A stretch of 64,000 nt of DNA from Loxodes magnus (Eukaryota; Ciliophora; Karyorelictea; Loxodida; Loxodidae), in contig CAMPDV010002369.1 of NCBI GenBank assembly GCA_946699065.1, positions 1-64,000 on the forward strand, written 5' to 3'. Every line of letters begins with the position of its first letter. The stretch's first letter is position 1. Made by a program: the position numbers and the translations under genes. Below, piece by piece: positions 1-64,000 of this stretch. The notes under the pieces are model-generated. The model did not search any database and had not been told where the DNA came from. It was given only the letters and a program-made list of their open reading frames with translations.

Positions 1-3000
1 GTATCGGGAAGTTATGATTATACGGTGAGACTATGGGACGTCAAGACAGGTACCTGTAAGACCATGAGTGGTCACACTAGTCATGTATGATCTGTGGCTA
101 TATCCAGTGATTCAGAGTTCATCGTATCGGGAAGTTATGATAATACGGTGAGACTATGGGACGTCAAGACAGGTACCTGTAAGACCATGAGTGGTCACAC
201 TAGTCATGTATGATCTGTGGCTATATCCAGTGATTCAGAGTTCATCGTATCGGGAAGTGGAGATTATACGGTGAGACTATGGGACGTCAAGACAGGTACC
301 TGTAAGACCATGAGTGGTCACACTAGTCATGTATGATCTGTGGCTATATCCAGTGATTCAGAGTTCATCGTATCGGGAAGTGGAGATTATACGGTGAGAC
401 TATGGGACGTCAAGACAGGTACCTGTAAGACCATGAGTGGTCACACAAATTCTGTATATGCTGTGGCTATATCCAGTGATTCAGAGTTCATCGTATCGGG
501 AAGTTATGATAATACGGTGAGACTATGGGACGTCAAGACAGGTACCTGTAAGACCATGAGTGGTCACACTAGTCATGTATGATCTGTGGCTATATCCAGT
601 GATTCAGAGTTCATCGTATCGGGAAGTGGAGATTATACGGTGAGACTATGGGACGTCAAGACAGGTACCTGTAAGACCATGAGTGGTCACACTAGTCATG
701 TATGATCTGTGGCTATATCCAGTGATTCAGAGTTCATCGTATCGGGAAGTGGAGATTATACGGTGAGACTATGGGACGTCAAGACAGGTACCTGTAAGAC
801 CATGAGTGGTCACACTAGTCATGTATTATCTGTGGCTATATCCAGTGATTCAGAGTTCATCGTATCGGGAAGTGCAGATTAGACGGTGAGACTATGGGAC
901 GTCAAGACAGGTACCTGTAAGACCATGAGTGTTCACACTGGTTATGTATGATCTGTGGCTATATCCAGTGATTCAGAGTTCATCGTATCGGGAAGTGCAG
1001 ATTATACGGTGAGACTATGGGACGTCAAGACAGGTACCTGTAAGACCATGAGTGGTCACACAAATTCTGTATATGCTGTGGCTATATCCAGTGATTCAGA
1101 GTTCATCGTATCGGGAAGTGGAGATTATACGGTGAGACTATGGGACGTCAAGACAGGTACCTGTAAGACCATGAGTGGTCACACTAGTTAAGTATTATCT
1201 GTGGCTATATCCAGTGATTCAGAGTTCATCGTATCGGGAAGTGCAGATAATACGGTGAGACTATGGGAAGTCAAGACAGGTACCTGTAAGACCATGAGTG
1301 GTCACACAGGTTATGTATTATCTGTGGCTATATCCAGTGATTCAGAGTTCATCGTATCGGGAAGTGGAGATTAGACGGTGAGACTATGGGACGTCAAGAC
1401 AGGTACCTGTAAGACCATGAGTGGTCACACAAATTCTGTATATGCTGTGGCTATATCCAGTGATTCAGAGTTCATCGTATCGGGAAGTGGAGATTATACG
1501 GTGAGACTATGGGACGTCAAGACAGGTACCTGTAAGACCATGAGTGGTCACACTAGTTAAGTATTATCTGTGGCTATATCCAGTGATTCAGAGTTCATCG
1601 TATCGGGAAGTTATGATAATACGGTGAGACTATGGGACGTCAAGACAGGTACCTGTAAGACCATGAGTGGTCACACTAGTTATGTATTATCTGTGGCTAT
1701 ATCCAGTGATTCAGAGTTCATCGTATCGGGAAGTTATGATTATACGGTGAGACTATGGGACGTCAAGACAGGTACCTGTAAGACCATGAGTGGTCACACT
1801 AATTCTGTATGATCTGTGGCTATATCCAGTGATTCAGAGTTCATCGTATCGGGAAGTTATGATTATACGGTGAGACTATGGGACGTCAAGACAGGTACCT
1901 GTAAGACCATGAGTGGTCACACTAGTCATGTATGATCTGTGGCTATATCCAGTGATTCAGAGTTCATCGTATCGGGAAGTTATGATAATACGGTGAGACT
2001 ATGGGACGTCAAGACAGGTACCTGTAAGACCATGAGTGGTCACACTAGTCATGTATGATCTGTGGCTATATCCAGTGATTCAGAGTTCATCGTATCGGGA
2101 AGTTATGATTATACGGTGAGACTATGGGACGTCAAGACAGGTACCTGTAAGACCATGAGTGGTCACACTAGTTATGTATTATCTGTGGCTATATCCAGTG
2201 ATTCAGAGTTCATCGTATCGGGAAGTTATGATTATACGGTGAGACTATGGGAAGTCAAGACAGGTACCTGTAAGACCATGAGTGGTCACACTAGTTAAGT
2301 ATTATCTGTGGCTATATCCAGTGATTCAGAGTTCATCGTATCGGGAAGTGCAGATTATACGGTGAGACTATGGGACGTCAAGACAGGTACCTGTAAGACC
2401 ATGAGTGGTCACACAGGTTATGTATGATCTGTGGCTATATCCAGTGATTCAGAGTTCATCGTATCGGGAAGTGCAGATTATACGGTGAGACTATGGGACG
2501 TCAAAACAGGTACCTGTAAGACCATGAGTGGTCACACTAATGTTGTATCTGCTGTGGCTATATCCAGTGATTCAGAGTTCATCGTATCGGGAAGTTATGA
2601 TTATACGGTGAGACTATGGGACGTCAAGACAGGTACCTGTAAGACCATGAGTGGTCACACTAGTCATGTATGATCTGTGGCTATATCCAGTGATTCAGAG
2701 TTCATCGTATCGGGAAGTGGAGATTATACGGTGAGACTATGGGACGTCAAGACAGGTACCTGTAAGACCATGAGTGGTCACACTAATGTTGTATCTGCTG
2801 TGGCTATATCCAGTGATTCAGAGTTCATCGTATCGGGAAGAAGAGATTAGACGGTGAGACTATGGGACGTCAAGACAGGTACCTGTAAGACCATGAGTGG
2901 TCACACTAGTTATGTATTATCTGTGGCTATATCCAGTGATTCAGAGTTCATCGTATCGGGAAGTTATGATTATACGGTGAGACTATGGGAAGTCAAGACA

Positions 3001-3840
3001 GGTACCTGTAAGACCATGAGTGGTCACACTAGTTAAGTATTATCTGTGGCTATATCCAGTGATTCAGAGTTCATCGTATCGGGAAGTGCAGATTATACGG
3101 TGAGACTATGGGACGTCAAGACAGGTACCTGTAAGACCATGAGTGGTCACACAGGTTATGTATGATCTGTGGCTATATCCAGTGATTCAGAGTTCATCGT
3201 ATCGGGAAGTGCAGATTATACGGTGAGACTATGGGACGTCAAGACAGGTACCTGTAAGACCATGAGTGGTCACACAGGTTATGTATGATCTGTGGCTATA
3301 TCCAGTGATTCAGAGTTCATCGTATCGGGAAGTGCAGATTATACGGTGAGACTATGGGACGTCAAAACAGGTACCTGTAAGACCATGAGTGGTCACACTA
3401 ATGTTGTATCTGCTGTGGCTATATCCAGTGATTCAGAGTTCATCGTATCGGGAAGTTATGATTATACGGTGAGACTATGGGACGTCAAGACAGGTACCTG
3501 TAAGACCATGAGTGGTCACACTAGTCATGTATGATCTGTGGCTATATCCAGTGATTCAGAGTTCATCGTATCGGGAAGTGGAGATTATACGGTGAGACTA
3601 TGGGACGTCAAGACAGGTACCTGTAAGACCATGAGTGGTCACACTAATGTTGTATCTGCTGTGGCTATATCCAGTGATTCAGAGTTCATCGTATCGGGAA
3701 GAAGAGATTAGACGGTGAGACTATGGGACGTCAAGACAGGTACCTGTAAGACCATGAGTGGTAACACTAATGTTGTATCTGCTGTGGCTATATCCAGTGA
3801 TTCAGAGTTCATCGTATCGGGAAGTTATGATTATACGGTG
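1..3840 (+). CDS. WD40 array open frame, block A (needs stop reassignment)
   Basis: This is 1280 codons in one frame starting at base 1 of the window, about 31 WD40 blades, and it is incomplete at the 5' end. The frame has no indel until an extra G near 3843. Under the standard code it is interrupted repeatedly, by TGA at unit position 40 (first at 88-90), TAG at 17 (880-882) and TAA at 38 (1189-1191). All core blade residues are kept. If those codons are sense it would be part of one giant propeller protein; if not, it is a minisatellite derived from one. No promoter, start site or signal sequence is visible. Confidence 0.35.
88..90 (+). other. Recurrent in-frame TGA, unit position 40 (first copy)
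   Basis: The codon sits in SHV-TGA-SVAISSD. TGA occupies this place in a large share of units throughout the window; other units have TTA (Leu), TAT (Tyr), TCT (Ser) or ATT/ATA-type codons. In WD40 proteins of the HET-E/cyanobacterial type the aligned position is very often Trp (SVWSVAFSPD), so Trp is the natural reading if TGA is sense here. Confidence 0.9.
880..882 (+). other. Recurrent in-frame TAG, unit position 17 (first copy)
   Basis: The context is ADx followed by TVRLWD. Most units have TAT (Tyr) or AAT (Asn) here; a recurrent minority on both halves have TAG. In WD40 blades this residue, just before T-V-x-[IL]-W, is often Lys, Asn, Gln or Glu, so Gln or Glu would fit if TAG is sense. 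Confidence 0.88.
1189..1191 (+). other. Recurrent in-frame TAA, unit position 38 (first copy)
   Basis: The context is GHTS-TAA-VLSV. The alternative codons at this place are TAT (Tyr), CAT (His), TCT (Ser) and GTT (Val). TAA occurs in many units, nearly always with Ser at 37 and Leu at 40, so it forms a stable haplotype. The position is a loop residue where a polar residue is normal. Confidence 0.88.
2431..3714 (+). repeat. Duplicated block at 7-unit spacing (861 bp)
   Basis: About 2431-2853 recurs at about 3292-3714. Both carry ADY with the silent AAA for Lys25, then NVVSA, YDY, SHV-TGA, GDY, NVVSA, and a unit with Arg at 15 and TAG at 17. A spacing of seven units equals one canonical propeller, though other block spacings here are not multiples of seven. 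Confidence 0.85.
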
Positions 3841-3844
3841 AGGA

Positions 3845-6800
3845 CTATGGGACGTCAAGACAGGTACCTGTAAGACCATGAGTGGTCACACTAGTCATGT
3901 ATGATCTGTGGCTATATCCAGTGATTCAGAATTCATCGTATCGGGAAGTTATGATTATACGGTGAGACTATGGGACGTCAAGACAGGTACCTGTAAGACC
4001 ATGAGTGGTCACACTAGTCATGTATGATCTGTGGCTATATCCAGTGATTCAGAGTTCATCGTATCGGGAAGTTATGATTATACGGTGAGACTATGGGACG
4101 TCAAGACAGGTACCTGTAAGACCATGAGTGGTCACACTAGTTAAGTATTATCTGTGGCTATATCCAGTGATTCAGAGTTCATCGTATCGGGAAGTTATGA
4201 TTATACGGTGAGACTATGGGACGTCAAGACAGGTACCTGTAAGACCATGAGTGGTCACACTAGTCATGTATGATCTGTGGCTATATCCAGTGATTCAGAG
4301 TTCATCGTATCGGGAAGTGGAGATTATACGGTGAGACTATGGGACGTCAAGACAGGTACCTGTAAGACCATGAGTGGTCACACTAGTTAAGTATTATCTG
4401 TGGCTATATCCAGTGATTCAGAGTTCATCGTATCGGGAAGTGGAGATTATACGGTGAGACTATGGGACGTCAAGACAGGTACCTGTAAGACCATGAGTGG
4501 TCACACAAATTCTGTATATGCTGTGGCTATATCCAGTGATTCAGAGTTCATCGTATCGGGAAGTGGAGATTATACGGTGAGACTATGGGACGTCAAGACA
4601 GGTACCTGTAAGACCATGAGTGGTCACACAGGTTATGTATGATCTGTGGCTATATCCAGTGATTCAGAGTTCATCGTATCGGGAAGTGGAGATTATACGG
4701 TGAGACTATGGGACGTCAAGACAGGTACCTGTAAGACCATGAGTGGTCACACTAGTCATGTATGATCTGTGGCTATATCCAGTGATTCAGAGTTCATCGT
4801 ATCGGGAAGTGGAGATTATACGGTGAGACTATGGGACGTCAAGACAGGTACCTGTAAGACCATGAGTGGTCACACTAGTCATGTATGATCTGTGGCTATA
4901 TCCAGTGATTCAGAGTTCATCGTATCGGGAAGTTATGATAATACGGTGAGACTATGGGACGTCAAGACAGGTACCTGTAAGACCATGAGTGGTCACACTA
5001 GTTATGTATTATCTGTGGCTATATCCAGTGATTCAGAGTTCATCGTATCGGGAAGTTATGATTATACGGTGAGACTATGGGACGTCAAGACAGGTACCTG
5101 TAAGACCATGAGTGGTCACACTAGTTAAGTATTATCTGTGGCTATATCCAGTGATTCAGAGTTCATCGTATCGGGAAGTTATGATTATACGGTGAGACTA
5201 TGGGAAGTCAAGACAGGTACCTGTAAGACCATGAGTGGTCACACTAATGTTGTATCTGCTGTGGCTATATCCAGTGATTCAGAGTTCATCGTATCGGGAA
5301 GTGGAGATTATACGGTGAGACTATGGGACGTCAAGACAGGTACCTGTAAGACCATGAGTGGTCACACTAGTCATGTATGATCTGTGGCTATATCCAGTGA
5401 TTCAGAGTTCATCGTATCGGGAAGTTATGATAATACGGTGAGACTATGGGACGTCAAGACAGGTACCTGTAAGACCATGAGTGGTCACACTAGTCATGTA
5501 TGATCTGTGGCTATATCCAGTGATTCAGAGTTCATCGTATCGGGAAGTGGAGATTATACGGTGAGACTATGGGACGTCAAGACAGGTACCTGTAAGACCA
5601 TGAGTGGTCACACTAGTCATGTATGATCTGTGGCTATATCCAGTGATTCAGAGTTCATCGTATCGGGAAGTTATGATAATACGGTGAGACTATGGGACGT
5701 CAAGACAGGTACCTGTAAGACCATGAGTGGTCACACTAGTTATGTATTATCTGTGGCTATATCCAGTGATTCAGAGTTCATCGTATCGGGAAGTTATGAT
5801 TATACGGTGAGACTATGGGACGTCAAGACAGGTACCTGTAAGACCATGAGTGGTCACACTAGTTAAGTATTATCTGTGGCTATATCCAGTGATTCAGAGT
5901 TCATCGTATCGGGAAGTTATGATTATACGGTGAGACTATGGGACGTCAAGACAGGTACCTGTAAGACCATGAGTGGTCACACTAGTTAAGTATTATCTGT
6001 GGCTATATCCAGTGATTCAGAGTTCATCGTATCGGGAAGTGCAGATAATACGGTGAGACTATGGGAAGTCAAGACAGGTACCTGTAAGACCATGAGTGGT
6101 CACACTAATTCTGTATTATCTGTGGCTATATCCAGTGATTCAGAGTTCATCGTATCGGGAAGTGGAGATTATACGGTGAGACTATGGGACGTCAAGACAG
6201 GTACCTGTAAGACCATGAGTGGTCACACTAGTTAAGTATTATCTGTGGCTATATCCAGTGATTCAGAGTTCATCGTATCGGGAAGTTATGATTATACGGT
6301 GAGACTATGGGAAGTCAAGACAGGTACCTGTAAGACAATGAGTGGTCACACAGGTTATGTATGATCTGTGGCTATATCCAGTGATTCAGAGTTCATCGTA
6401 TCGGGAAGTGGAGATTATACGGTGAGACTATGGGACGTCAAGACAGGTACCTGTAAGACCATGAGTGGTCACACTAGTTAAGTATTATCTGTGGCTATAT
6501 CCAGTGATTCAGAGTTCATTGTATCGGGAAGTTATGATAATACGGTGAGACTATGGGACGTCAAGACAGGTACCTGTAAGACAATGAGTGGTCACACTAG
6601 TTAAGTATTATCTGTGGCTATATCCAGTGATTCAGAGTTCATCGTATCGGGAAGTGCAGATTATACGGTGAGACTATGGGACGTCAAAACAGGTACCTGT
6701 AAGACCATGAGTGGTCACACTAATTCTGTATTATCTGTGGCTATATCCAGTGATTCAGAGTTCATCGTATCGGGAAGTTATGATTATACGGTGAGACTAT

Positions 6801-9800
6801 GGGACGTCAAGACAGGTACCTGTAAGACCATGAGTGGTCACACTAGTTAAGTATTATCCGTGGCTATATCCAGTGATTCAGAGTTCATCGTATCGGGAAG
6901 TGGAGATTATACGGTGAGACTATGGGACGTCAAGACAGGTACCTGTAAGACCATGAGTGGTCACACTAGTCATGTATGATCTGTGGCTATATCCAGTGAT
7001 TCAGAGTTCATCGTATCGGGAAGTGCAGATTATACGGTGAGACTATGGGACGTCAAGACAGGTACCTGTAAGACCATGAGTGGTCACACTAGTCATGTAT
7101 GATCTGTGGCTATATCCAGTGATTCAGAGTTCATCGTATCGGGAAGTTATGATTATACGGTGAGACTATGGGACGTCAAGACAGGTACCTGTAAGACCAT
7201 GAGTGGTCACACTAGTCATGTATGATCTGTGGCTATATCCAGTGATTCAGAGTTCATCGTATCGGGAAGTTATGATTATACGGTGAGACTATGGGACGTC
7301 AAGACAGGTACCTGTAAGACCATGAGTGGTCACACTAGTCATGTATGATCTGTGGCTATATCCAGTGATTCAGAGTTCATCGTATCGGGAAGTTATGATT
7401 ATACGGTGAGACTATGGGACGTCAAGACAGGTACCTGTAAGACCATGAGTGGTCACACTAGTCATGTATGATCTGTGGCTATATCCAGTGATTCAGAGTT
7501 CATCGTATCGGGAAGTGGAGATAATACGGTGAGACTATGGGACGTCAAGACAGGTACCTGTAAGACCATGAGTGGTCACACAAATTCTGTATATGCTGTG
7601 GCTATATCCAGTGATTCAGAGTTCATCGTATCGGGAAGTGGAGATTATACGGTGAGACTATGGGACGTCAAGACAGGTACCTGTAAGACCATGAGTGGTC
7701 ACACAGGTTATGTATGATCTGTGGCTATATCCAGTGATTCAGAGTTCATCGTATCGGGAAGTGGAGATTATACGGTGAGACTATGGGACGTCAAGACAGG
7801 TACCTGTAAGACCATGAGTGGTCACACTAGTCATGTATGATCTGTGGCTATATCCAGTGATTCAGAGTTCATCGTATCGGGAAGTGGAGATTATACGGTG
7901 AGACTATGGGACGTCAAGACAGGTACCTGTAAGACCATGAGTGGTCACACTAGTCATGTATGATCTGTGGCTATATCCAGTGATTCAGAGTTCATCGTAT
8001 CGGGAAGTTATGATAATACGGTGAGACTATGGGACGTCAAGACAGGTACCTGTAAGACCATGAGTGGTCACACTAGTTATGTATTATCTGTGGCTATATC
8101 CAGTGATTCAGAGTTCATCGTATCGTGAAGTAGAGATTATACGGTGAGACTATGGGACGTCAAGACAGGTACCTGTAAGACCATGAGTGGTCACACTAGT
8201 CATGTATGATCTGTGGCTATATCCAGTGATTCAGAGTTCATCGTATCGGGAAGTGGAGATTATACGGTGAGACTATGGGACGTCAAGACAGGTACCTGTA
8301 AGACCATGAGTGGTCACACAAATTCTGTATATGCTGTGGCTATATCCAGTGATTCAGAGTTCATCGTATCGGGAAGTGGAGATTATACGGTGAGACTATG
8401 GGACGTCAAGACAGGTACCTGTAAGACCATGAGTGGTCACACTAGTTAAGTATTATCTGTGGCTATATCCAGTGATTCAGAGTTCATCGTATCGGGAAGT
8501 TATGATTATACGGTGAGACTATGGGACGTCAAGACAGGTACCTGTAAGACAATGAGTGGTCACACAGGTTATGTATGATCTGTGGCTATATCCAGTGATT
8601 CAGAGTTCATCGTATCGGGAAGTGGAGATTATACGGTGAGACTATGGGACGTCAAGACAGGTACCTGTAAGACCATGAGTGGTCACACTAGTCATGTATG
8701 ATCTGTGGCTATATCCAGTGATTCAGAGTTCATCGTATCGGGAAGTGGAGATTATACGGTGAGACTATGGGACGTCAAGACAGGTACCTGTAAGACCATG
8801 AGTGGTCACACTAGTCATGTATGATCTGTGGCTATATCCAGTGATTCAGAGTTCATCGTATCGGGAAGTTATGATAATACGGTGAGACTATGGGACGTCA
8901 AGACAGGTACCTGTAAGACCATGAGTGGTCACACTAATGTTGTATCTGCTGTGGCTATATCCAGTGATTCAGAGTTCATCGTATCGTGAAGTAGAGATTA
9001 TACGGTGAGACTATGGGACGTCAAGACAGGTACCTGTAAGACCATGAGTGGTCACACTAGTCATGTATGATCTGTGGCTATATCCAGTGATTCAGAGTTC
9101 ATCGTATCGGGAAGTTATGATTATACGGTGAGACTATGGGACGTCAAGACAGGTACCTGTAAGACCATGAGTGGTCACACTAGTCATGTATGATCTGTGG
9201 CTATATCCAGTGATTCAGAGTTCATCGTATCGGGAAGTTATGATTATACGGTGAGACTATGGGACGTCAAGACAGGTACCTGTAAGACCATGAGTGGTCA
9301 CACTAGTCATGTATGATCTGTGGCTATATCCAGTGATTCAGAGTTCATCGTATCGGGAAGTGGAGATAATACGGTGAGACTATGGGACGTCAAGACAGGT
9401 ACCTGTAAGACCATGAGTGGTCACACAAATTCTGTATATGCTGTGGCTATATCCAGTGATTCAGAGTTCATCGTATCGGGAAGTGGAGATTATACGGTGA
9501 GACTATGGGACGTCAAGACAGGTACCTGTAAGACCATGAGTGGTCACACAGGTTATGTATGATCTGTGGCTATATCCAGTGATTCAGAGTTCATCGTATC
9601 GGGAAGTGGAGATTATACGGTGAGACTATGGGACGTCAAGACAGGTACCTGTAAGACCATGAGTGGTCACACTAGTCATGTATGATCTGTGGCTATATCC
9701 AGTGATTCAGAGTTCATCGTATCGGGAAGTGGAGATTATACGGTGAGACTATGGGACGTCAAGACAGGTACCTGTAAGACCATGAGTGGTCACACTAGTC

Positions 9801-12800
9801 ATGTATGATCTGTGGCTATATCCAGTGATTCAGAGTTCATCGTATCGGGAAGTTATGATAATACGGTGAGACTATGGGACGTCAAGACAGGTACCTGTAA
9901 GACCATGAGTGGTCACACTAGTTATGTATTATCTGTGGCTATATCCAGTGATTCAGAGTTCATCGTATCGTGAAGTAGAGATTATACGGTGAGACTATGG
10001 GACGTCAAGACAGGTACCTGTAAGACCATGAGTGGTCACACTAGTCATGTATGATCTGTGGCTATATCCAGTGATTCAGAGTTCATCGTATCGGGAAGTG
10101 GAGATTATACGGTGAGACTATGGGACGTCAAGACAGGTACCTGTAAGACCATGAGTGGTCACACAAATTCTGTATATGCTGTGGCTATATCCAGTGATTC
10201 AGAGTTCATCGTATCGGGAAGTGGAGATTATACGGTGAGACTATGGGACGTCAAGACAGGTACCTGTAAGACCATGAGTGGTCACACTAGTTAAGTATTA
10301 TCTGTGGCTATATCCAGTGATTCAGAGTTCATCGTATCGGGAAGTTATGATTATACGGTGAGACTATGGGACGTCAAGACAGGTACCTGTAAGACAATGA
10401 GTGGTCACACAGGTTATGTATGATCTGTGGCTATATCCAGTGATTCAGAGTTCATCGTATCGGGAAGTGGAGATTATACGGTGAGACTATGGGACGTCAA
10501 GACAGGTACCTGTAAGACCATGAGTGGTCACACTAGTCATGTATGATCTGTGGCTATATCCAGTGATTCAGAGTTCATCGTATCGGGAAGTGGAGATTAT
10601 ACGGTGAGACTATGGGACGTCAAGACAGGTACCTGTAAGACCATGAGTGGTCACACTAGTCATGTATGATCTGTGGCTATATCCAGTGATTCAGAGTTCA
10701 TCGTATCGGGAAGTTATGATAATACGGTGAGACTATGGGACGTCAAGACAGGTACCTGTAAGACCATGAGTGGTCACACTAATGTTGTATCTGCTGTGGC
10801 TATATCCAGTGATTCAGAGTTCATCGTATCGTGAAGTAGAGATTATACGGTGAGACTATGGGACGTCAAGACAGGTACCTGTAAGACCATGAGTGGTCAC
10901 ACTAGTCATGTATGATCTGTGGCTATATCCAGTGATTCAGAGTTCATCGTATCGGGAAGTAGAGATTAGACGGTGAGACTATGGGACGTCAAGACAGGTA
11001 CCTGTAAGACCATGAGGGGTAACACTAATGTTGTATCTGCTGTGGCTATATCCAGTGATTCAGAGTTCATCGTATCGGGAAGTGCAGATTATACGGTGAG
11101 ACTATGGGACGTCAAGACAGGTACCTGTAAGACCATGAGTGGTCACACAAATTCTGTATATGCTGTGGCTATATCCAGTGATTCAGAGTTCATCGTATCG
11201 GGAAGTGGAGATTATACGGTGAGACTATGGGACGTCAAGACAGGTACCTGTAAGACCATGAGTGGTCACACTAGTTAAGTATTATCCGTGGCTATATCCA
11301 GTGATTCAGAGTTCATCGTATCGGGAAGTGGAGATTATACGGTGAGACTATGGGACGTCAAGACAGGTACCTGTAAGACCATGAGTGGTCACACTAGTCA
11401 TGTATGATCTGTGGCTATATCCAGTGATTCAGAGTTCATCGTATCGGGAAGTGGAGATTATACGGTGAGACTATGGGACGTCAAGACAGGTACCTGTAAG
11501 ACCATGAGTGGTCACACTAGTCATGTATGATCTGTGGCTATATCCAGTGATTCAGAGTTCATCGTATCGGGAAGTTATGATAATACGGTGAGACTATGGG
11601 ACGTCAAGACAGGTACCTGTAAGACCATGAGTGGTCACACTAGTCATGTATGATCTGTGGCTATATCCAGTGATTCAGAGTTCATCGTATCGGGAAGTGG
11701 AGATTATACGGTGAGACTATGGGACGTCAAGACAGGTACCTGTAAGACCATGAGTGGTCACACAAATTCTGTATATGCTGTGGCTATATCCAGTGATTCA
11801 GAGTTCATCGTATCGGGAAGTGGAGATTAGACTGTGAGACTATGGGACGTCAAGACAGGTACCTGTAAGACCATGAGTGGTCACACTAGTCATGTATTAT
11901 CTGTGGCTATATCCAGTGATTCAGAGTTCATCGTATCGGGAAGTTATGATTATACGGTGAGACTATGGGACGTCAAGACAGGTACCTGTAAGACCATGAG
12001 TGGTCACACAGGTTATGTATTATCTGTGGCTATATCCAGTGATTCAGAGTTCATCGTATCGGGAAGTGCAGATAATACGGTGAGACTATGGGAAGTCAAG
12101 ACAGGTACCTGTAAGACCATGAGTGGTCACACTAGTCATGTATGATCTGTGGCTATATCCAGTGATTCAGAGTTCATCGTATCGGGAAGTGGAGATTATA
12201 CGGTGAGACTATGGGACGTCAAGACAGGTACCTGTAAGACCATGAGTGGTCACACTAGTCATGTATGATCTGTGGCTATATCCAGTGATTCAGAGTTCAT
12301 CGTATCGGGAAGTAGAGATTAGACGGTGAGACTATGGGACGTCAAGACAGGTACCTGTAAGACCATGAGGGGTAACACTAATGTTGTATCTGCTGTGGCT
12401 ATATCCAGTGATTCAGAGTTCATCGTATCGGGAAGTGCAGATTATACGGTGAGACTATGGGACGTCAAGACAGGTACCTGTAAGACCATGAGTGGTCACA
12501 CAAATTCTGTATATGCTGTGGCTATATCCAGTGATTCAGAGTTCATCGTATCGGGAAGTGGAGATTATACGGTGAGACTATGGGACGTCAAGACAGGTAC
12601 CTGTAAGACCATGAGTGGTCACACTAGTTAAGTATTATCCGTGGCTATATCCAGTGATTCAGAGTTCATCGTATCGGGAAGTGGAGATTATACGGTGAGA
12701 CTATGGGACGTCAAGACAGGTACCTGTAAGACCATGAGTGGTCACACTAGTCATGTATGATCTGTGGCTATATCCAGTGATTCAGAGTTCATCGTATCGG

Positions 12801-16070: not shown

Positions 16071-16084
16071 AGTCATACATGACT
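16071..16084. other. Inversion point of the palindrome (2-nt centre)
   Basis: The forward array stops inside the variable block after AGTCAT (16071-16076). Two bases, AC, follow, and then ATGACT begins the reverse array. The right arm is the reverse complement of the left arm extended by GT, the two bases that normally follow AGTCAT in a unit. The switch is therefore a fold-back with a 2-nt asymmetry and no inserted sequence. Such a tight centre fits snap-back priming, a missed-adapter or template-complement chimeric read, or a real fold-back inversion. Confidence 0.92.
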
Positions 16085-32911: not shown

Positions 32912-32919
32912 CAGCAGAT

Positions 32920-53083: not shown

Positions 53084-54839
53084 AGATCATACATGACTAG
53101 TGTGACCACTCATGGTCTTACAGGTACCTGTCTTGACGTCCCATAGTCTCACCGTATAATCATAACTTCCCGATACGATGAACTCTGAATCACTGGATAT
53201 AGCCACAGATCATACATGACTAGTGTGACCACTCATGGTCTTACAGGTACCTGTCTTGACGTCCCATAGTCTCACCGTATTATCATAACTTCCCGATACG
53301 ATGAACTCTGAATCACTGGATATAGCCACAGATCATACATGACTAGTGTGACCACTCATGGTCTTACAGGTACCTGTCTTGACGTCCCATAGTCTCACCG
53401 TATAATCTCCACTTCCCGATACGATGAACTCTGAATCACTGGATATAGCCACAGCAGATACAACATTAGTGTGACCACTCATGGTCTTACAGGTACCTGT
53501 CTTGACGTCCCATAGTCTCACCGTATAATCTCCACTTCCCGATACGATGAACTCTGAATCACTGGATATAGCCACAGATCATACATGACTAGTGTGACCA
53601 CTCATGGTCTTACAGGTACCTGTCTTGACGTCCCATAGTCTCACCGTATAATCTCCACTTCCCGATACGATGAACTCTGAATCACTGGATATAGCCACAG
53701 ATATTACAGAACTAGTGTGACCACTCATGGTCTTACAGGTACCTGTCTTGACGTCCCATAGTCTCACCGTCTAATCTGCACTTCCCGATACGATGAACTC
53801 TGAATCACTGGATATAGCCACAGATAATACATAACCTGTGTGACCACTCATTGTCTTACAGGTACCTGTCTTGACGTCCCATAGTCTCACCGTCTAATCT
53901 GCACTTCCCGATACGATGAACTCTGAATCACTGGATATAGCCACAGATAATACATAACTAGTGTGACCACTCATGGTCTTACAGGTACCTGTCTTGACGT
54001 CCCATAGTCTCACCGTATAATCTCCACTTCCCGATACGATGAACTCTGAATCACTGGATATAGCCACAGCATATACAACATTAGTGTGACCACTCATGGT
54101 CTTACAGGTACCTGTCTTGACGTCCCATAGTCTCACCGTATAATCATAACTTCCCGATACGATGAACTCTGAATCACTGGATATAGACACAGATCATACA
54201 TGACTAGTGTGACCACTCATGGTCTTACAGGTACCTGTCTTGACGTCCCATAGTCTCACCGTATAATCTGCACTTCCCGATACGATGAACTCTGAATCAC
54301 TGGATATAGCCACAGCATATACAGAATTTTGTGACCACTCATGGTCTTACAGGTACCTGTCTTGACGTCCCATAGTCTCACCGTCTTATCTGCACTTCCC
54401 GATACGATGAACTCTGAATCACTGGATATAGCCACAGATCATACATGACTAGTGTGACCACTCATGGTCTTACAGGTACCTGTCTTGACGTCCCATAGTC
54501 TCACCGTATAATCTCTACTTCCCGATACGATGAACTCTGAATCACTGGATATAGCCACAGATCATACATGACTAGTGTGACCACCTCATGGTCTTACAGG
54601 TACCTGTCTTGACGTCCCATAGTCTCACCGTATAATCTCCACTTCCGATACGATGAACTCTGAATCACTGGATATAGCCACAGCAGATACATGACTAGTG
54701 TGACCACTCATGGTCTTACAGGTACCTGTCTTGACGTCCCATAGTCTCACCGTATAATCTCCACTTCCCGATACGATGAACTCTGAATCACTGGATATAG
54801 CCACAGCAGATACATAACCTGTGTGACCACTCATGGTCT

Positions 54840-56340
54840 TACAGGTACCTGTCTTGACGTCCCATAGTCTCACCGTATAATCTCTACTTCCCGATACGAT
54901 GAACTCTGAATCACTGGATATAGCCACAGCAGATACATAACCTGTGTGACCACTCATGGTCTTACAGGTACCTGTCTTGACGTCCCATAGTCTCACCGTA
55001 TAATCTCTACTTCCCGATACGATGAACTCTGAATCACTGGATATAGCCACAGATCATACATGACTAGTGTGACCACTCATGGTCTTACAGGTACCTGTCT
55101 TGACGTCCCATAGTCTCACCGTATTATCTCTACTTCCCGATACGATGAACTCTGAATCACTGGATATAGCCACAGCATATACAGAATTTGTGTGACCACT
55201 CATGGTCTTACAGGTACCTGTCTTGACGTCCCATAGTCTCACCGTATAATCTCTACTTTCCGATACAATGAACTCTGAATCACTGGATATAGCCACAGAT
55301 AATACAGAATTAGTGTGACCACTCATGGTCTTACAGGTACCTGTCTTGAATTCCCATAGTCTCACCGTATAATCTGCACTTCCCGATACGATGAACTCTG
55401 AATCACTGGATATCGCCACAGATAATACATAACTAGTGTGACCACTCATGGTCTTACAGGTACCTGTCTTGACTCCCATAGTCTCACCGTATAATCATAA
55501 CTTCCCGATACGATGAACTCTGAATCACTGGATATAGCCACAGATCATACATGACTAGTGTGACCACTCATGGTCTTACAGGTACCTGTCTTGACGTCCC
55601 ATAGTCTCACCGTATAATCTCCACTTCCCGATACGATGAACTCTGAATCACTGGATATAGCCACAGCAGATACAACATTAGTGTGACCACTCATGGTCTT
55701 ACAGGTACCTGTCTTGACGTCCCATAGTCTCACCGTATAATCTCCACTTCCCGATACGATGAACTCTGAATCACTGGATATAGCCACAGCAGATACATAC
55801 CTGTGTGACCACTCATGGTCTTACAGGTACCTGTCTTGACGTCCCATAGTCCTCACCGTATAATCTCTACTTCCCGATACGATGAACTCTGAATCACTGG
55901 ATATAGCCACAGCAGATACATAACCTGTGTGACCACTCATGGTCTTACAGGTACCTGTCTTGACGTCCCATAGTCTCACCGTATAATCTCTACTTCCCGA
56001 TACGATGAACTCTGAATCACTGGATATAGCCACAGATCATACATGACTAGTGTGACCACTCATGGTCTTACAGGTACCTGTCTTGACGTCCCATAGTCTC
56101 ACCGTATTATCTCTACTTCCCGATACGATGAACTCTGAATCACTGGATATAGCCACAGCATATACAGAATTTGTGTGACCACTCATGGTCTTACAGGTAC
56201 CTGTCTTGACGTCCCATAGTCTCACCGTATAATCTCTACTTTCCGATACAATGAACTCTGAATCACTGGATATAGCCACAGATAATACAGAATTAGTGTG
56301 ACCACTCATGGTCTTACAGTACCTGTCTTGAATTCCCATA
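54840..56340 (-). repeat. Duplicated block at about 8-unit spacing with Gly13 to Glu marker
   Basis: About 54840-55350 and about 55850-56340 have the same order: RDY with GYVSA, RDY, SHV-TGA, RDN, NSVYA, a unit with Glu at 13 (SES) plus the silent ATT for Ile10, NSVLS, then a Glu23-Phe24 unit. The spacing is about 982 bp, which is 8 units less small losses. The Glu13 and ATT markers near 55258 and 56240 are both rare, so the blocks share a recent ancestor. Confidence 0.8.
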
Positions 56341-57757
56341 GTCTCACCGTATAATCATAACTTCCCGATACGATGAACTCTGAATCACTGGATATAGCCA
56401 CAGCATATACAACATTAGTGTGACCACTCATGGTCTTACAGGTACCTGTCTTGACTTCCCATAGTCTCACCGTATAATCATAACTTCCCGATACGATGAA
56501 CTCTGAATCACTGGATATAGCCACAGATAATACATAACTAGTGTGACCACTCATGGTCTTACAGGTACCTGTCTTGACGTCCCATAGTCTCACCGTATAA
56601 TCTCCACTTCCCATACGATGAACTCTGAATCACTGGATATAGCCACAGCAGATACAACATTAGTGTGACCACTCATGGTCTTACAGGTACCTGTCTTGAC
56701 GTCCCATAGTCTCACCGTATAATCTCCACTTCCCGATACGATGAACTCTGAATCACTGGATATAGCCACAGCAGATACATAACCTGTGTGACCACTCATG
56801 GTCTTACAGGTACCTGTCTTGACGTCCCATAGTCTCACCGTATAATCTCCACTTCCCGATACGATGAACTCTGAATCACTGGATATAGCCACAGATAATA
56901 CTTAACTAGTGTGACCACTCATGGTCTTACAGGTACCTGTCTTGACTTCCCATAGTCTCACCGTATAATCATAACTTCCCGATACGATGAACTCTGAATC
57001 ACTGGATATAGCCACAGATAATACATAACTAGTGTGACCACTCATGGTCTTACAGGTACCTGTCTTGACGTCCCATAGTCTCACCGTATTATCTGCACTT
57101 CCCGATACGATGAACTCTGAATCACTGGATATAGCCACAGCAGATACATAACCTGTGTGACCACTCATGGTCTTACAGGTACCTGTCTTGACGTCCCATA
57201 GTCTCACCGTATAATCTCTACTTCACGATACGATGAACTCTGAATCACTGGATATAGCCACAGATCATACATGACTAGTGTGACCACTCATGGTCTTACA
57301 GGTACCTGTCTTGACTTCCCATAGTCTCACCGTATTATCTCTACTTCCCGATACGATGAACTCTGAATCACTGGATATAGCCACAGATAATACATAACTA
57401 GTGTGACCACTCATGGTCTTACAGGTACCTGTCTTGACGTCCCATAGTCTCACCGTCTAATCTCTACTTCCCGATACGATGAACTCTGAATCACTGGATA
57501 TAGCCACAGATCATACATGACTAGTGTGACCACTCATGGTCTTACAGGTACCTGTCTTGACGTCCCATAGTCTCACAGTCTAATCTGCACTTCCCGATAC
57601 GATGAACTCTGAATCACTGGATATAGCCACAGCATATACAACATTAGTGTGACCACTCATGGTCTTACAGGTACCTGTCTTGACTTCCCATAGTCTCACC
57701 GTATAATCATAACTTCCCGATACGATGAACTCTGAATCACGGATATAGCCACAGATA

Positions 57758-60700
57758 TACATAACTAGTCTGACCACTCATGGTCTTACAGGTACCTGTC
57801 TTGACGTCCCATAGTCTCACCGTATTATCTCCACTTCCCGATACGATGAACTCTGAATCACTGGATATAGCCACAGATCATACATAATGTGTGTGACCAC
57901 TCATGGTCTTACAGGTACCTGTCTTGACGTCCCATAGTCTCACCGTATAATCTCCACTTCCCGATACGATGAACTCTGAATCACTGGATATAGCCACAGA
58001 TCATACATGACTAGTGTGACCACTCATGGTCTTACAGGTACCTGTCTTGACGTCCCATAGTCTCACCGTATAATCTCTACTTCACGATACGATGAACTCT
58101 GAATCACTGGATATAGCCACAGATCATACATGACTAGTGTGACCACTCATGGTCTTACAGGTACCTGTCTTGACGTCCCATAGTCTCACCGTATAATCTC
58201 CACTTCCCTATACGATGAATTCTGAATCACTGGATATAGCCACAGATCATACATGACTAGTGTGACCACTCATGGTCTTACAGGTACCTGTCTTGACGTC
58301 CCATAGTCTCACCGTATAATCTCCACTTCCCGATACGATGAACTCTGAATCACTGGATATAGCCACAGATGATACAGAATTTGTGTGACCACTCATGGTC
58401 TTACAGGTACCTGTCTTGACGTCCCATAGTCTCACCGTATTATCTCCACTTCCCGATACGATGAACTCTGAATCACTGGATATAGCCACAGCATATACAA
58501 CATTAGTGTGACCACTCATGGTCTTACAGGTACCTGTCTTGACTTCCCATAGTCTCACCGTATAATCATAACTTCCCGATACGATGAACTCTGAATCACT
58601 GGATATAGCCACAGATAATACTTAACTAGTGTGACCACTCATGGTCTTACAGGTACCTGTCTTGACGTCCCATAGTCTCACCGTATAATCTCTACTTCCC
58701 GATACGATGAACTCTGAATCACTGGATATAGCCACAGATCATACATGACTAGTGTGACCACTCATGGTCTTACAGGTACCTGTCTTGACGTCCCATAGTC
58801 TCACCGTATAATCTCTACTTCACGATACGATGAACTCTGAATCACTGGATATAGCCACAGATCATACATGACTAGTGTGACCACTCATGGTCTTACAGGT
58901 ACCTGTCTTGACGTCCCATAGTCTCACCGTCTAATCTCCACTTCCCGATACGATGAACTCTGAATCACTGGATATAGCCACAGATCATACATGACTAGTG
59001 TGACCACTCATGGTCTTACAGGTACCTGTCTTGACGTCCCATAGTCTCACCGTATAATCTCCACTTCCCTATACGATGAATTCTGAATCACTGGATATAG
59101 CCACAGATCATACATGACTAGTGTGACCACTCATGGTCTTACAGGTACCTGTCTTGACGTCCCATAGTCTCACAGTCTAATCTGCACTTCCCGATACGAT
59201 GAACTCTGAATCACTGGATATAGCCACAGATCATACATGACTAGTGTGACCACTCATGGTCTTACAGGTACCTGTCTTGACGTCCCATAGTCTCACCGTA
59301 TTATCTCCACTTCCCGATACGATGAACTCTGAATCACTGGATATAGCCACAGCATATACAACATTAGTGTGACCACTCATGGTCTTACAGGTACCTGTCT
59401 TGACTTCCCATAGTCTCACCGTATAATCATAACTTCCCGATACGATGAACTCTGAATCACTGGATATAGCCACAGATAATACTTAACTAGTGTGACCACT
59501 CATGGTCTTACAGGTACCTGTCTTGACGTCCCATAGTCTCACCGTATAATCTCTACTTCCCGATACGATGAACTCTGAATCACTGGATATAGCCACAGAT
59601 CATACATGACTAGTGTGACCACTCATGGTCTTACAGGTACCTGTCTTGACGTCCCATAGTCTCACCGTATAATCTCTACTTCACGATACGATGAACTCTG
59701 AATCACTGGATATAGCCACAGATCATACATGACTAGTGTGACCACTCATGGTCTTACAGGTACCTGTCTTGACGTCCCATAGTCTCACCGTATTATCTCC
59801 ACTTCCCGATACGATGAACTCTGAATCACTGGATATAGCCACAGATAATACTTAACTAGTGTGACCACTCATGGTCTTACAGGTACCTGTCTTGACGTCC
59901 CATAGTCTCACCGTATAATCTCTACTTCACGATACGATGAACTCTGAATCACTGGATATAGCCACAGATCATACATGACTAGTGTGACCACTCATGGTCT
60001 TACAGGTACCTGTCTTGACGTCCCATAGTTTCACCGTATAATCTCCACTTCCCGATACGATGAACTCTGAATCACTGGATATAGCCACAGCATATACAGA
60101 ATTTTTGTGACCACTCATGGTCTTACAGGTACCTGTCTTGACGTCCCATAGTCTCACCGTATAATCTCTACTTCCCGATACGATGAACTCTGAATCACTG
60201 GATATAGCCACAGATCATACATGACTAGTGTGACCACTCATGGTCTTACAGGTACCTGTCTTGACGTCCCATAGTCTCACCGTATAATCTCTACTTCCCG
60301 ATACGATGAACTCTGAATCACTGGATATAGCCACAGATCATACATGACTAGTGTGACCACTCATGGTCTTACAGGTACCTGTCTTGACTTCCCATAGTCT
60401 CACCGTATTATCTGCACTTCCCGATACGATGAACTCTGAATCACTGGATATAGCCACAGATCATACATAAATAGTGTGACCACTCATGGTCTTACAGGTA
60501 CCTGTCTTGACGTCCCATAGTCTCACCGTATAATCTCTACTTCCCGATACGATGAACTCTGAATCACTGGATATAGCCACAGATCATACATAAATAGTGT
60601 GACCACTCATGGTCTTACAGGTACCTGTCTTGACTTCCCATAGTCTCACCGTATTATCTGCACTTCCCGATACGATGAACTCTGAATCACTGGATATAGC

Positions 60701-61381
60701 CACAGATAATACTTAACTAGTGTGACCACTCATGGTCTTACAGGTACCTGTCTTGACGTCCCATAGTCTCACCGTATAATCTCTACTTTCCGATACAATG
60801 AACTCTGAATCACTGGATATAGCCACAGCAGATACATAATGTGTGTGACCACTCATGGTCTTACAGGTACCTGTCTTGACGTCCCATAGTCTCACCGTAT
60901 AATCTGAACTTCCCGATACGATGAACTCTGAATCACTGGATATAGCCACAGATCATACATGACTAGTGTGACCACTCATGGTCTTACAGGTACCTGTCTT
61001 GACGTCCCATAGTCTCACCGTATAATCTCTACTTCCCGATACGATGAACTCTGAATCACTGGATATAGCCACAGATCATACATGACTAGTGTGACCACTC
61101 ATGGTCTTACAGGTACCTGTCTTGACGTCCCATAGTCTCACCGTATAATCTCCACTTCCCGATACGATGAACTCTGAATCACTGGATATAGCCACAGATC
61201 ATACATAACTAGTGTGACCACTCATGGTCTTACAGGTACCTGTCTTGACTTCCCATAGTCTCACCGTATTATCTGCACTTCCCGATACGATGAACTCTGA
61301 ATCACTGGATATAGCCACAGATCATACATAAATAGTGTGACCACTCATGGTCTTACAGGTACCTGTCTTGACGTCCCATAG
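57758..61381 (-). CDS. WD40 array open frame, block G (needs stop reassignment)
   Basis: 1208 codons, about 29 blades, in one - strand frame between a lost base near 57754 and a gain near 61384. It contains many units with TGA at 40 and several with the linked TGA at 13 plus Arg at 15 (near 58085, 58815, 59685 and 59930). The 984-bp duplicated segments around 58247-58612 and 59231-59473 lie here. Rare variants include Arg20 to Lys near 60030 and Ser at position 15 (SDY) near 60908. The clean frame directly after the broken region is striking. Confidence 0.32.
58247..59473 (-). repeat. Duplicated block at 8-unit spacing (984 bp)
   Basis: The order YDY-E-NVVYA-GDN is found at 58247-58612 and 59231-59473, 984 bp apart, and both are followed by TAA at 38, an Arg unit, SHV-TGA, then the TGA-13/Arg-15 unit. 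The TATACGATGAATTCTG form near 58208 and 59072 (Ser12-Gly13 region altered) is also shared. Confidence 0.78.
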
Positions 61382-61691
61382 TCCTCACCGTATAATCTCT
61401 ACTTCCCGATACGATGAACTCTGAATCACTGGATATAGCCACAGATCATACATAAATAGTGTGACCACTCATGGTCTTACAGGTACCTGTCTTGACGTCC
61501 CATAGTCTCACCGTATAATCTCTACTTCCCGATACAATGAACTCTGAATCACTGGATATAGCCACAGCAGATACATAATGTGTGTGACCACTCATGGTCT
61601 TACAGGTACCTGTCTTGACGTCCCATAGTCTCACCGTATTATCATAACTTCCCGATACGATGAACTCTGAATCACTGGATATAGCCACAGA

Positions 61692-62549
61692 TCATACATG
61701 ACTAGTGTGACCACTCATGGTCTTACAGGTACCTGTCTTGACGTCCCATAGTCTCACCGTATAATCTGCACTTCCCGATACGATGAACTCTGAATCACTG
61801 GATATAGCCACAGCAGATACAACATTAGTGTTACCACTAATGGTCTTACAGGTACCTGTCTTGACGTCCCATAGTCTCACCGTATTATCTCCACTTCCCG
61901 ATACGATGAACTCTGAATCACTGGATATAGCCACAGATAATACATAACTAGTGTGACCACTCATGGTCTTACAGGTACCTGTCTTGACGTCCCATAGTCT
62001 CACCGTATTATCTGCACTTCCCGATACGATGAACTCTGAATCACTGGATATAGCCACAGCAGATACATAACCTGTGTGACCACTCATGGTCTTACAGGTA
62101 CCTGTCTTGACGTCCCATAGTCTCACCGTATAATCTCCACTTCCCGATACGATGAACTCTGAATCACTGGATATAGCCACAGATAATACAGAACTAGTGT
62201 GACCACTCATGGTCTTACAGGTACCTGTCTTGACGTCCCATAGTCTCACCGTATTATCTGCACTTCCCGATACGATGAACTCTGAATCACTGGATATAGC
62301 CACAGCAGATACATAATGTGTGTGACCACTCATGGTCTTACAGGTACCTGTCTTGACGTCCCATAGTCTCACCGTATAATCTGAACTTCCCGATACGATG
62401 AACTCTGAATCACTGGATATAGCCACAGATAATACATAACTAGTGTGACCACTCATGGTCTTACAGGTACCTGTCTTGACGTCCCATAGTCTCACCGTAT
62501 TATCTCCACTTCCCGATACGATGAACTCTGAATCACTGGATATAGCCAC
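61692..62549 (-). CDS. Seven-blade WD40 stretch, longest standard-code frame
   Basis: 285 codons without a stop, the longest in the window and exactly seven units, one canonical propeller. Triplets in order are GDN, SDY, ADN, GDY, ADN, GDN and ADY, with linking blocks SYVLS, HYVSA, SSVLS, GYVSA, SYVLS and NVVSA. The last inter-blade segment reads TISGNT, with Met32 to Ile and His35 to Asn, a loss of the usually conserved GH histidine. The apparent GTG start is the internal Val of a unit; upstream is TAA at position 38 and the end is TGA at position 40. It is most likely an accidental stop-free run of the array, but it is the best candidate for a self-contained propeller under the standard code. 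Confidence 0.28.
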   Translation of the reverse strand: MAISSDSEFIVSGSGDNTVRLWDVKTGTCKTMSGHTSYVLSVAISSDSEFIVSGSSDYTVRLWDVKTGTCKTMSGHTHYVSAVAISSDSEFIVSGSADNTVRLWDVKTGTCKTMSGHTSSVLSVAISSDSEFIVSGSGDYTVRLWDVKTGTCKTMSGHTGYVSAVAISSDSEFIVSGSADNTVRLWDVKTGTCKTMSGHTSYVLSVAISSDSEFIVSGSGDNTVRLWDVKTGTCKTISGNTNVVSAVAISSDSEFIVSGSADYTVRLWDVKTGTCKTMSGHTSHV

Positions 62550-64000
62550 AGATAATACTTAACTAGTGTGACCACTCATGGTCTTACAGGTACCTGTCTT
62601 GACGTCCCATAGTCTCACCGTATTATCATAACTTCCCGATACGATGAACTCTGAATCACTGGATATAGCCACAGCATATACAACATTAGTGTGACCACTC
62701 ATGGTCTTACAGGTACCTGTCTTGACGTCCCATAGTCTCACCGTATAATCTCCACTTCCCGATACGATGAACTCTGAATCACCTGGATATAGCCACAGAT
62801 CATACATGACTAGTGTGACCACTCATGGTCTTACAGGTACCTGTCTTGACGTCCCATAGTCTCACCGTCTAATCTCTACTTCCCGATACGATGAACTCTG
62901 AATCACTGGATATAGCCACAGATAATACATAACTAGTGTGACCACTCATGGTCTTACAGGTACCTGTCTTGACGTCCCATAGTCTCACCGTATTATCATA
63001 ACTTCCCGATACGATGAACTCTGAATCACTGGATATAGCCACAGCATATACAGAATTTTTGTGACCACTCATGGTCTTACAGGTACCTGTCTTGACGTCC
63101 CATAGTCTCACCGTATAATCTCCACTTCCCGATACGATGAACTCTGAATCACTGGATATAGCCACAGATAATACATAACTAGTGTGACCACTCATGGTCT
63201 TACAGGTACCTGTCTTGACGTCCCATAGTCTCACCGTCTAATCTCTACTTCCCGATACGATGAACTCTGAATCACTGGATATAGCCACAGATAATACATA
63301 ACTAGTGTGACCACTCATGGTCTTACAGGTACCTGTCTTGACGTCCCATAGTCTCACCGTATTATCTCCACTTCCCGATACGATGAACTCTGAATCACTG
63401 GATATAGCCACAGCAGATACATAACCTGTGTGACCACTCATGGTCTTACAGGTACCTGTCTTGACGTCCCATAGTCTCACCGTATAATCTCCACTTCCCG
63501 ATACGATGAACTCTGAATCACTGGATATAGCCACAGATCATACATGACTAGTGTGACCACTCATGGTCTTACAGGTACCTGTCTTGACGTCCCATAGTCT
63601 CACCCGTATTATCTCTACTTCCCGATACGATGAACTCTGAATCACTGGATATAGCCACAGCAGATACATAACCTGTGTGACCACTCATGGTCTTACAGGT
63701 ACCTGTCTTGACGTCCCATAGTCTCACCGTATAATCTCACCTTCCCGATACGATGAACTCTGAATCACTGGATATAGCCACAGCAGATACATAACCTGTG
63801 TGACCACTCATGGTCTTACAGGTACCTGTCTTGACGTCCCATAGTCTCACCGTATTATCATAACTTCCCGATACGATGAACTCTGAATCACTGGATATAG
63901 CCACAGATAATACAGAATTAGTATGACCACTCATGGTCTTACAGGTACCTGTCTTGACGTCCCATAGTCTCACCGTATAATCTCTACTTCCCGATACGAT

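What the first reader, a model, noticed from the sequence alone, without database searches (positions are those of the whole stretch)
1..64000. In-frame stops sit only at variable surface positions: possible reassignment of all three stop codons
TGA, TAA and TAG recur many times in frame, but I find them at only four unit positions (13, 17, 38, 40), all of which also vary among sense codons. A decaying array should collect stops anywhere a single change allows, for example at the Trp22, Gln-like or Ser codons of the core. TGA at 40 aligns with the usual Trp of SVWSVAFSPD in HET-E-like WD40 repeats. Codes reading TGA as Trp and TAA/TAG as Gln or Glu are known in Condylostoma and karyorelict ciliates, Blastocrithidia and some Amoebophrya. 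With such a code, clean frames of 11 kb appear.
Basis: partly seen in the sequence, partly recalled or inferred. Interest (0 to 1): 0.82.

Follow-up and report, generated by a model that had tools for sequence, protein, structure and literature searches.

The report
Giant WD40 array containing stop codons
A very long stretch of almost identical protein-repeat DNA, of the kind that builds receptor surfaces, carries "stop" signals at the variable positions where receptors change, which suggests but does not prove that its unknown owner reads those signals as amino acids.

Summary
The whole window is one 123-bp (41-codon) WD40 array. Bases 1-16073 are a fold-back copy of 16082 onward (99.9%), so 388 complete units are counted. 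They hold 279 in-frame stop copies: codons 40 (165), 38 (58), 17 (40), 13 (13), 12 (2), 15 (1). By distinct events the clustering is not significant (P=0.13), and "clean frames" are trivial once no codon stops.

Better evidence exists. Codons 15, 17, 38 and 40 are the hypervariable sites of HET-E-type receptor repeats. TGA40, TAA38 and TAG17 are common there and largely recombine like sense alleles, while core variants stay rare; a neutral model gave this in 3 of 15,000 runs. Rare core variants still favour third codon positions (15 of 25, 8.7 expected, P=0.004), as if translation passes the stops. Homologues favour Trp at 40 and Gln at 17. No genome is held, so the code itself is untested. 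Partly supported, about 0.5; main rival: a dead, amplified array.

The parts
1..16073 (+). WD40 array, left arm (129 complete units split out): mirror copy of 16082 onward, either a fold-back artefact or a palindromic duplication
16074..16081 (.). 8-nt spacer at the fold-back turn; the sense strand switches here
16082..64000 (-). WD40 array, right arm: 388 complete 41-codon units, the data set counted here; no end of the array is seen in the window
33040..44355 (-). longest stretch of the right arm without any irregular unit (11,316 bp)
33040..35991 (-). 24 units read with TGA=W, TAA=Q, TAG=Q (P0121), used as search query
35128..35988 (-). seven units' length (287 residues) modelled with TGA=W, TAA=Q, TAG=Q; pLDDT 96.3
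58982..59104 (-). unit with TAG at core codon 12, against the 'only four positions' claim; a second such unit starts at 58243
24923..24923 (-). start of the longest exact higher-order duplication found (15 unit types, distance 15 units)

Best explanation
This is a very long, concertedly evolving WD40 array of the 'high internal conservation' type used as the variable sensor of NLR/STAND receptors (HET-E-like). Units fold into seven-bladed propellers whose top-face residues (codons 15, 17, 38, 40) diversify while the rest is homogenised by unequal exchange and gene conversion. TGA, TAG and TAA are old, common alleles at codons 40, 17 and 38 and are (or were, while the array evolved) read as amino acids, most likely TGA=Trp and TAG/TAA=Gln, as in Condylostoma, Parduczia and Amoebophrya ex K. 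veneficum. Shown: array, mirror arms, hypervariable sites, allele behaviour, codon-phase constraint. Inferred: the code, expression, receptor function, the exchange mechanism, the organism.
For: Hypervariable codon pairs 15/17 and 38/40 flank near-invariant D16 and invariant V39 (387 and 388 of 388). This matches the spacing of the positively selected Podospora NWD codons 7/9 and 25/27 around 8 and 26 (PMC1805685, passages) and the entropy peaks of 82 conserved arrays among 240 homologues. Stops at variable codons reaching >=10%: 3 of 11 reachable, against 0 of 67 core synonymous (P=0.002) and 1 of 287 of all non-stop core changes (P=1.5e-4); at >=3%: 4 of 11 against 1 of 67 (P=0.001) and 2 of 287 (P=1.5e-5); at >=4.5%: 3 of 11 against 1 of 67 (P=0.008) and 2 of 287 (P=4e-4). 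Neutral dead-array simulation: 3 of 15,000 runs with >=3 such stops at >=10% and <=1 core variant at >=10%. TAG17 occurs with three of four common codon-15 alleles, TGA40 in 10 in-block contexts; rarefied other-block partners are 9.2 and 9.7 against 7.4-12.3 for sense alleles at 15, 17, 38 and 40. Core variants at third positions: 17 of 27 in units of standard length, expected 9.5, P=0.0013 (all units 17 of 29, P=0.004); rare ones 15 of 25, P=0.004; those only in stop-bearing units 9 of 14, P=0.018. No indel is shared by both mirrored arms. Profile: W ranks first at 40, Q first at 17. Model with stops as W/Q: pLDDT 96.3, pTM 0.92.
Against: No conserved gene, tRNA, transcript or peptide of this genome could be examined. 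TGA13 (13 copies) falls where 0 of 786 homologous units have Trp and TAG12 where 0 of 391 have Gln; both, with TGA15, are of the G:C>T:A class that leads among core changes (12 of 29) and look like ordinary nonsense. TAA38 is uninformative in the profile and is the least reassorted of the three common stops (7.0 rarefied partners, just below the lowest sense allele, GTT38, 7.4). The profile method is weak: true residues of sense codons at these sites often rank low (His at 38 ranks 19th), and the same Trp/Gln pattern would arise from nonsense change in a dead array. A translated run of at least 388 units (about 15,900 aa) is extreme. TGG is never seen at 40, nor CAA/CAG at 17 or 38. The synonymous excess is weaker than the third-position excess (P=0.03-0.05 overall, 0.05-0.16 for rare subsets), singletons alone give P=0.057, and third-position diversity is driven mainly by two variants, D23E and a synonymous T31. 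The variable-codon set was chosen after seeing the data, the tests overlap, and the SNVs are not fully independent.
Confidence: 0.52

Rival explanations
1. A dead, satellite-like array: the WD40 exon of a standard-code NLR-type gene was inactivated, gained a few stops, and was then amplified; hypervariable alleles are relics of its coding past and the stops are ordinary nonsense spread by unequal exchange.
For: Stops are in frame and frequent; the distinct-event test gives only P=0.13; TGA13, TAG12, TGA15 look like new nonsense; Podospora NWD pseudogenes are a precedent (passages) and WD40 repeats with stop codons occur in het-d alleles (passages); prior odds favour pseudogenes over a code with no free stop (judgement).
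Against: Common stops outnumber common core changes far beyond a neutral model; rare core variants still show third-position excess, also in stop-bearing units; no shared indels in the 129 mirrored units.
Confidence: 0.3
2. A silent donor reservoir: untranslated itself, but exchanging units with expressed arrays elsewhere, which would import codon-phase constraint and hypervariability; stops persist because the donor is not translated.
For: Paoletti et al. propose exchange between pseudogene and active WD repeats in Podospora (passages); reassortment between and within blocks here.
Against: Exchange with active standard-code arrays should dilute stops and gives no reason for them to be common only at hypervariable codons; no expressed partner is known.
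Confidence: 0.12
3. Standard code, with the transcript recoded: A-to-I editing would turn all three stops into UGG (Trp) (recalled, from no call).
For: Trp ranks first at 40 and second at 38.
Against: Trp is about 1 of 786 at codon 17 and 0 of 786 at 13; would need hundreds of sites edited in one message.
Confidence: 0.03
4. Artefact of sequencing or assembly.
For: Mirror arms with one-arm indels; fold-back reads are a known ONT/PacBio artefact.
Against: Could explain the mirror and the frameshifts, not the stops: identical in 129 of 129 mirrored units and in many haplotypes.
Confidence: 0.03

Closest known systems
HNWD/NWD (HET-D, HET-E, HET-R) WD40 sensor repeats of Podospora anserina and other high-internal-conservation NLR repeats
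   Same: WD40 units over 85% alike, homogenised core, the same spacing of hypervariable codons in two pairs around constrained residues, signs of repeat shuffling (passages)
   Different: 41 codons instead of the usual 42-43; at least 388 units instead of about ten; all three stop codons as common alleles; no NACHT/HET part seen in the window
Nuclear codes without a dedicated stop: Condylostoma, Parduczia (UAA/UAG=Q, UGA=W), Amoebophrya sp. ex Karlodinium veneficum
   Same: All three stops in frame; Q at 17 and W at 40 are the best-ranked readings
   Different: Known there from many genes and from tRNAs for UAA/UAG; here a single locus. Amoebophrya Kv is 65.2% AT, this array about 56% AT
Blastocrithidia nonstop code (UAR=E, UGA=W)
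   Same: All three stops as sense (abstract in search listings)
   Different: Glu is a poor fit at codon 17 (0.022 against 0.37 for Gln)
2ymu (highly repetitive WD40 propeller), Tako8 and WRAP-T designed propellers, 5yzv PkwA
   Same: Among the closest solved sequences and folds; v31WRAP-T (7bid) TM 0.93, rmsd 1.0
   Different: Proteins of about 290-580 residues, not arrays of hundreds of units

Membership tests
High-internal-conservation WD40 sensor array (HNWD/NLR type) | WD40 repeats | tested here: met
   PF00400 1.4e-30 for a typed mosaic of units with TGA read as W; propeller-like model of the window's own read-through, pLDDT 96.3
High-internal-conservation WD40 sensor array (HNWD/NLR type) | units over 85% alike | tested here: met
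   94-95% matches
High-internal-conservation WD40 sensor array (HNWD/NLR type) | two pairs of hypervariable codons around constrained ones, diversifying | tested here: met
   codons 15/17 and 38/40; 16 near-invariant, 39 invariant; dN/dS by site not computed
High-internal-conservation WD40 sensor array (HNWD/NLR type) | NACHT or NB-ARC core and N-terminal effector | not testable with these tools
   window is repeats from end to end
High-internal-conservation WD40 sensor array (HNWD/NLR type) | open reading frame under the standard code | tested here: not met
   247 of 388 units carry a stop; longest stop-free run 6 units
Nuclear code with UAA/UAG=Q and UGA=W | in-frame stops inside sequence under codon-level constraint | tested here: inconclusive
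   third-position excess, P from 0.001 to 0.08 over ten overlapping subsets; one locus only
Nuclear code with UAA/UAG=Q and UGA=W | stops at conserved Trp/Gln of conserved genes | not testable with these tools
   no genome held; at this locus W first at 40, Q first at 17, TAA38 uninformative, 13 and 12 misfit
Nuclear code with UAA/UAG=Q and UGA=W | cognate suppressor tRNAs or altered tRNA-Trp | not testable with these tools
   no tRNA in the window
RIP-mutated pseudogene | C>T at CpA depletes CpA | tested here: not met
   CpA-containing codons TCA7 and ACA26 intact in 388 of 388, CAC35 in 381 of 388; C>T/G>A only 7 of 29 core changes
Untranslated satellite | variants without codon phase | tested here: not met
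   core diversity 0.0019/0.0010/0.0135 at codon positions 1/2/3 and 17 of 27 distinct variants at third positions; an older coding history cannot be fully excluded

The most novel reading that the evidence does not exclude
In an organism with no dedicated stop codon, 'stop' codons are working alleles in the diversifying surface of an immune-type receptor array: a single frame of at least 388 WD40 units (about 15,900 residues, roughly 55 propellers) in which TGA, TAG and TAA encode Trp and Gln at positions under diversifying selection, without terminating translation.
Probability: 0.4. Interest if true: 0.82.

Novelty: new variant of a known kind. Interest (0 to 1): 0.56.

Why it matters
If true, it links two rare things: genetic codes without a free stop codon, and fast-diversifying receptor repeats. 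It would show natural alleles moving between stop and sense codons at sites under diversifying selection, and give hundreds of in-frame stops in one message for testing how such organisms avoid premature termination. If false, it is still an unusual case of a receptor-type repeat turned into an array of at least 47.9 kb, and a caution that fold-back assembly can double such data.

Tried and rejected
Finding the organism: exact 30-mer in viral contigs (none); protein patterns in viral contigs (none) and genome contigs (38 stretches matched a pattern, 9 confirmed, all at most 60% identity); blastn in phages and plasmids (none); three protein searches, of which I saw the best 120 of 4,577, the best 120 of 4,627 and 17 of 17: best identity 60%, nothing that looks like the same organism.

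RIP or C>T decay: rejected, see membership test. A short intron hiding the stop-bearing part: not tested by any search; rejected by inspection, since the stretch around codons 38-41 and 1-6 encodes canonical WD40 residues and removing 23 nt would break the frame. Diversity-generating retroelement: not tested by any search; set aside because the variants do not follow an adenine-only pattern (pattern recalled). Identifying it as Amoebophrya sp. Kv: no evidence; composition differs. Literature: searches on WD40 arrays with stop codons, high internal conservation or satellites returned 0, 1, 0 and 1 papers, the two judged irrelevant by title.

Limits: the profile came from hits to queries containing W at 40 and (P0121) Q at 17 and 38, so it is biased towards those residues; the hosts' codes were not checked. 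The simulations depend on assumed exchange and founder settings. Four SNV subsets and six overlap; P values are descriptive. Results against or weak: synonymous excess P=0.03-0.05 for three subsets and 0.31 for singletons, 0.05-0.16; rare variants only in stop-free units 5 of 8 (P=0.08); rare variants with <=4 copies 13 of 23 (P=0.019). Units dropped: partial units at the ends and at the turn. The '123-nt' rows leave out the 40 odd-length units; 3 units of 123 nt with a compensated insertion and deletion remain in them.
Full report
WHAT IS THERE. Tandem Repeats Finder covers the full 64 kb with one 123-bp unit (130.7 copies on + for 1-16073, 389.8 on - for the rest, 94-95% matches). The unit is 41 codons; a typed composite of such units with TGA read as Trp matches PF00400 at 1.4e-30. 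The first 16,073 bases are the mirror image of the sequence from 16,082 on, with an 8-nt turn between them. Over 16 kb the arms differ by 16 single-base indels, one isolated substitution and one four-base difference within a unit. Each indel is in one arm only, so I take those frameshifts as consensus errors. Fold-backs are a known long-read artefact (PMC12870357, abstract and Background section); whether this one is an artefact or a real palindrome cannot be told here. Counts below therefore use the 388 complete units of the right arm.

THE STOPS. 279 copies: TGA40 165, TAA38 58, TAG17 40, TGA13 13, TAG12 2, TGA15 1; 141 of 388 units are stop-free and the longest stop-free run is 6 units. The 129 paired units of the two arms have the same stop content, 129 of 129. 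The claim of only four positions fails at codons 12 and 15. Counted as distinct events the preference for variable codons is not significant: 5 of 6 events, with 11 of 21 reachable stops lying in variable codons, P=0.13. The core expectation is 1.46 nonsense variants and 1 is seen. An 11.3-kb stretch has no irregular unit, but with all three stops read as sense every frame is open, so this speaks only to indels.

WHY THE STOPS STILL LOOK LIKE ALLELES. In Podospora NWD repeats, codons 7, 9, 25 and 27 are under positive selection, in pairs around constrained codons 8 and 26 (PMC1805685, passages). Here 38/40 around V39 (388 of 388) and 15/17 around D16 (387 of 388) have the same spacing, allowing for a unit one codon shorter. 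As a control, 82 conserved arrays found among 240 homologues have their highest within-array entropy at 15, 38, 37, 40, 17 and 36; ours peaks at 38, 15, 40, 37 and 17. The three common stops are at three of these four codons. At >=10% frequency there are 3 of 11 reachable stops at variable codons against 0 of 67 synonymous and 1 of 220 non-synonymous core changes (P=0.002 against synonymous, 1.5e-4 against both). Simulating an untranslated array founded by stop-free units gave >=3 stops at >=10% in 12 of 15,000 runs over six settings, and in 3 of 15,000 together with <=1 core variant at >=10% (a first trial of 180 runs gave 0).

RECOMBINATION AND CONSTRAINT. TAG17 is combined with three of the four common codon-15 alleles, TGA40 with four codon-38 alleles and 10 in-block contexts; TAA38 nearly always goes with TTA40 (57 of 58). 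Rarefied partner numbers are 9.2 (TAG17), 7.0 (TAA38) and 9.7 (TGA40), against 7.4-12.3 for sense alleles at codons 15, 17, 38 and 40, so TAA38 lies just below that range. TGA13 occurs in one in-block context and so looks young. Core variants are biased to third codon positions: 17 of 27 in units of standard length (9.5 expected from the same mutation types, P=0.0013; all units 17 of 29, P=0.004); synonymous 10 of 27 (5.8 expected, P=0.033); core diversity 0.0019, 0.0010 and 0.0135 at codon positions 1, 2 and 3, the last driven mainly by D23E (39 units) and a synonymous T31 (18 units). Rare variants (<=6 copies), which should be younger than the common stops, keep the bias: 15 of 25 (P=0.004; all units 15 of 27, P=0.012), and 9 of 14 for those only in stop-bearing units (P=0.018); 5 of 8 for those only in stop-free units (P=0.08). 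Their synonymous excess is weaker (P=0.05-0.16), and singletons alone reach P=0.057. Every unit has a stop at or at most 6 units before it, on average 0.58 units. If translation stopped there, such selection could not act.

WHICH AMINO ACIDS. With the homologue profile Trp ranks first at 40 (0.27) and Gln first at 17 (0.37); TAA38 is uninformative, and TAA38 with TAG17 give Arg 0.30 and Gln 0.28. Calibration on sense codons is poor, so this is weak. TGA13 and TAG12 contradict a uniform Trp/Gln reading: with codon 13 added to 40 Trp falls to 0.007, with codon 12 added to 17 Gln falls to 0.005. The same Trp/Gln pattern would arise if a dead array had lost Trp and Gln codons by nonsense change, so it does not separate the hypotheses. 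Seven units' length read with TGA=W and TAR=Q give a confident all-strand model (pLDDT 96.3, pTM 0.92), matching seven-bladed designed propellers and natural WD40 domains. Model residue n is codon n+1: codon 13 ends strand 8-13, 15 and 17 lie in the loop before strand 17-22, 38 just precedes and 40 lies in strand 38-43; these loops are on the top face of WD40 propellers (top-face assignment recalled).

KNOWN CONTEXT. Codes with UAA/UAG=Q and UGA=W exist in Condylostoma and Parduczia (PMC4967479, passages) and are inferred in Amoebophrya ex K. veneficum, where about half the gene models contain stops (PMC6394959 and PMC12005148, passages). Blastocrithidia uses UAR=E (abstract in listings), which fits codon 17 poorly. 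The best-scoring listed protein is from the fungus Ceratobasidium, 49% over 72% of the query, followed by bacterial nSTAND, NB-ARC and NACHT WD40 proteins among others. Also looked at, passages only: PMC12222747, PMC4986451, PMC11890096.

VERDICT. The array, its hypervariable sites and its stop alleles are real. That the stops are read as sense is the reading favoured by the allele-frequency and codon-phase tests, but it rests on one locus of an unidentified genome; an amplified dead array remains a serious rival.

Noticed in passing
16074-16081: Turn of a mirror palindrome with arms of at least 16,073 bp at about 99.9% identity; the first 16 kb add no independent units.
   Followed up: yes
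16082-64000: Core substitutions are led by G:C>T:A (12 of 29 distinct), a transversion-rich spectrum.
   Followed up: partly
16082-64000: Higher-order repeats: unit types recur at lags of 6, 7, 8 and 15 units (z 4.3, 7.0, 5.1, 7.7), with one exact 15-unit duplication from 24923; seven units is one propeller.
   Followed up: partly
44400-57900: Units of odd length cluster here (25 of 40 in the right arm start between 44477 and 57874), suggesting lower consensus quality in this stretch.
   Followed up: no
12680-12689 and 19464-19470: The only multi-base difference between the mirrored arms swaps the codon 15/17 alleles of one unit, hinting at haplotype mixing or polishing error.
   Followed up: no
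16082-64000: Codon 13 departs from GGA (TGA 13, GAA 3, GTA 1) only in units with AGA at codon 15, 17 of 17.
   Followed up: no
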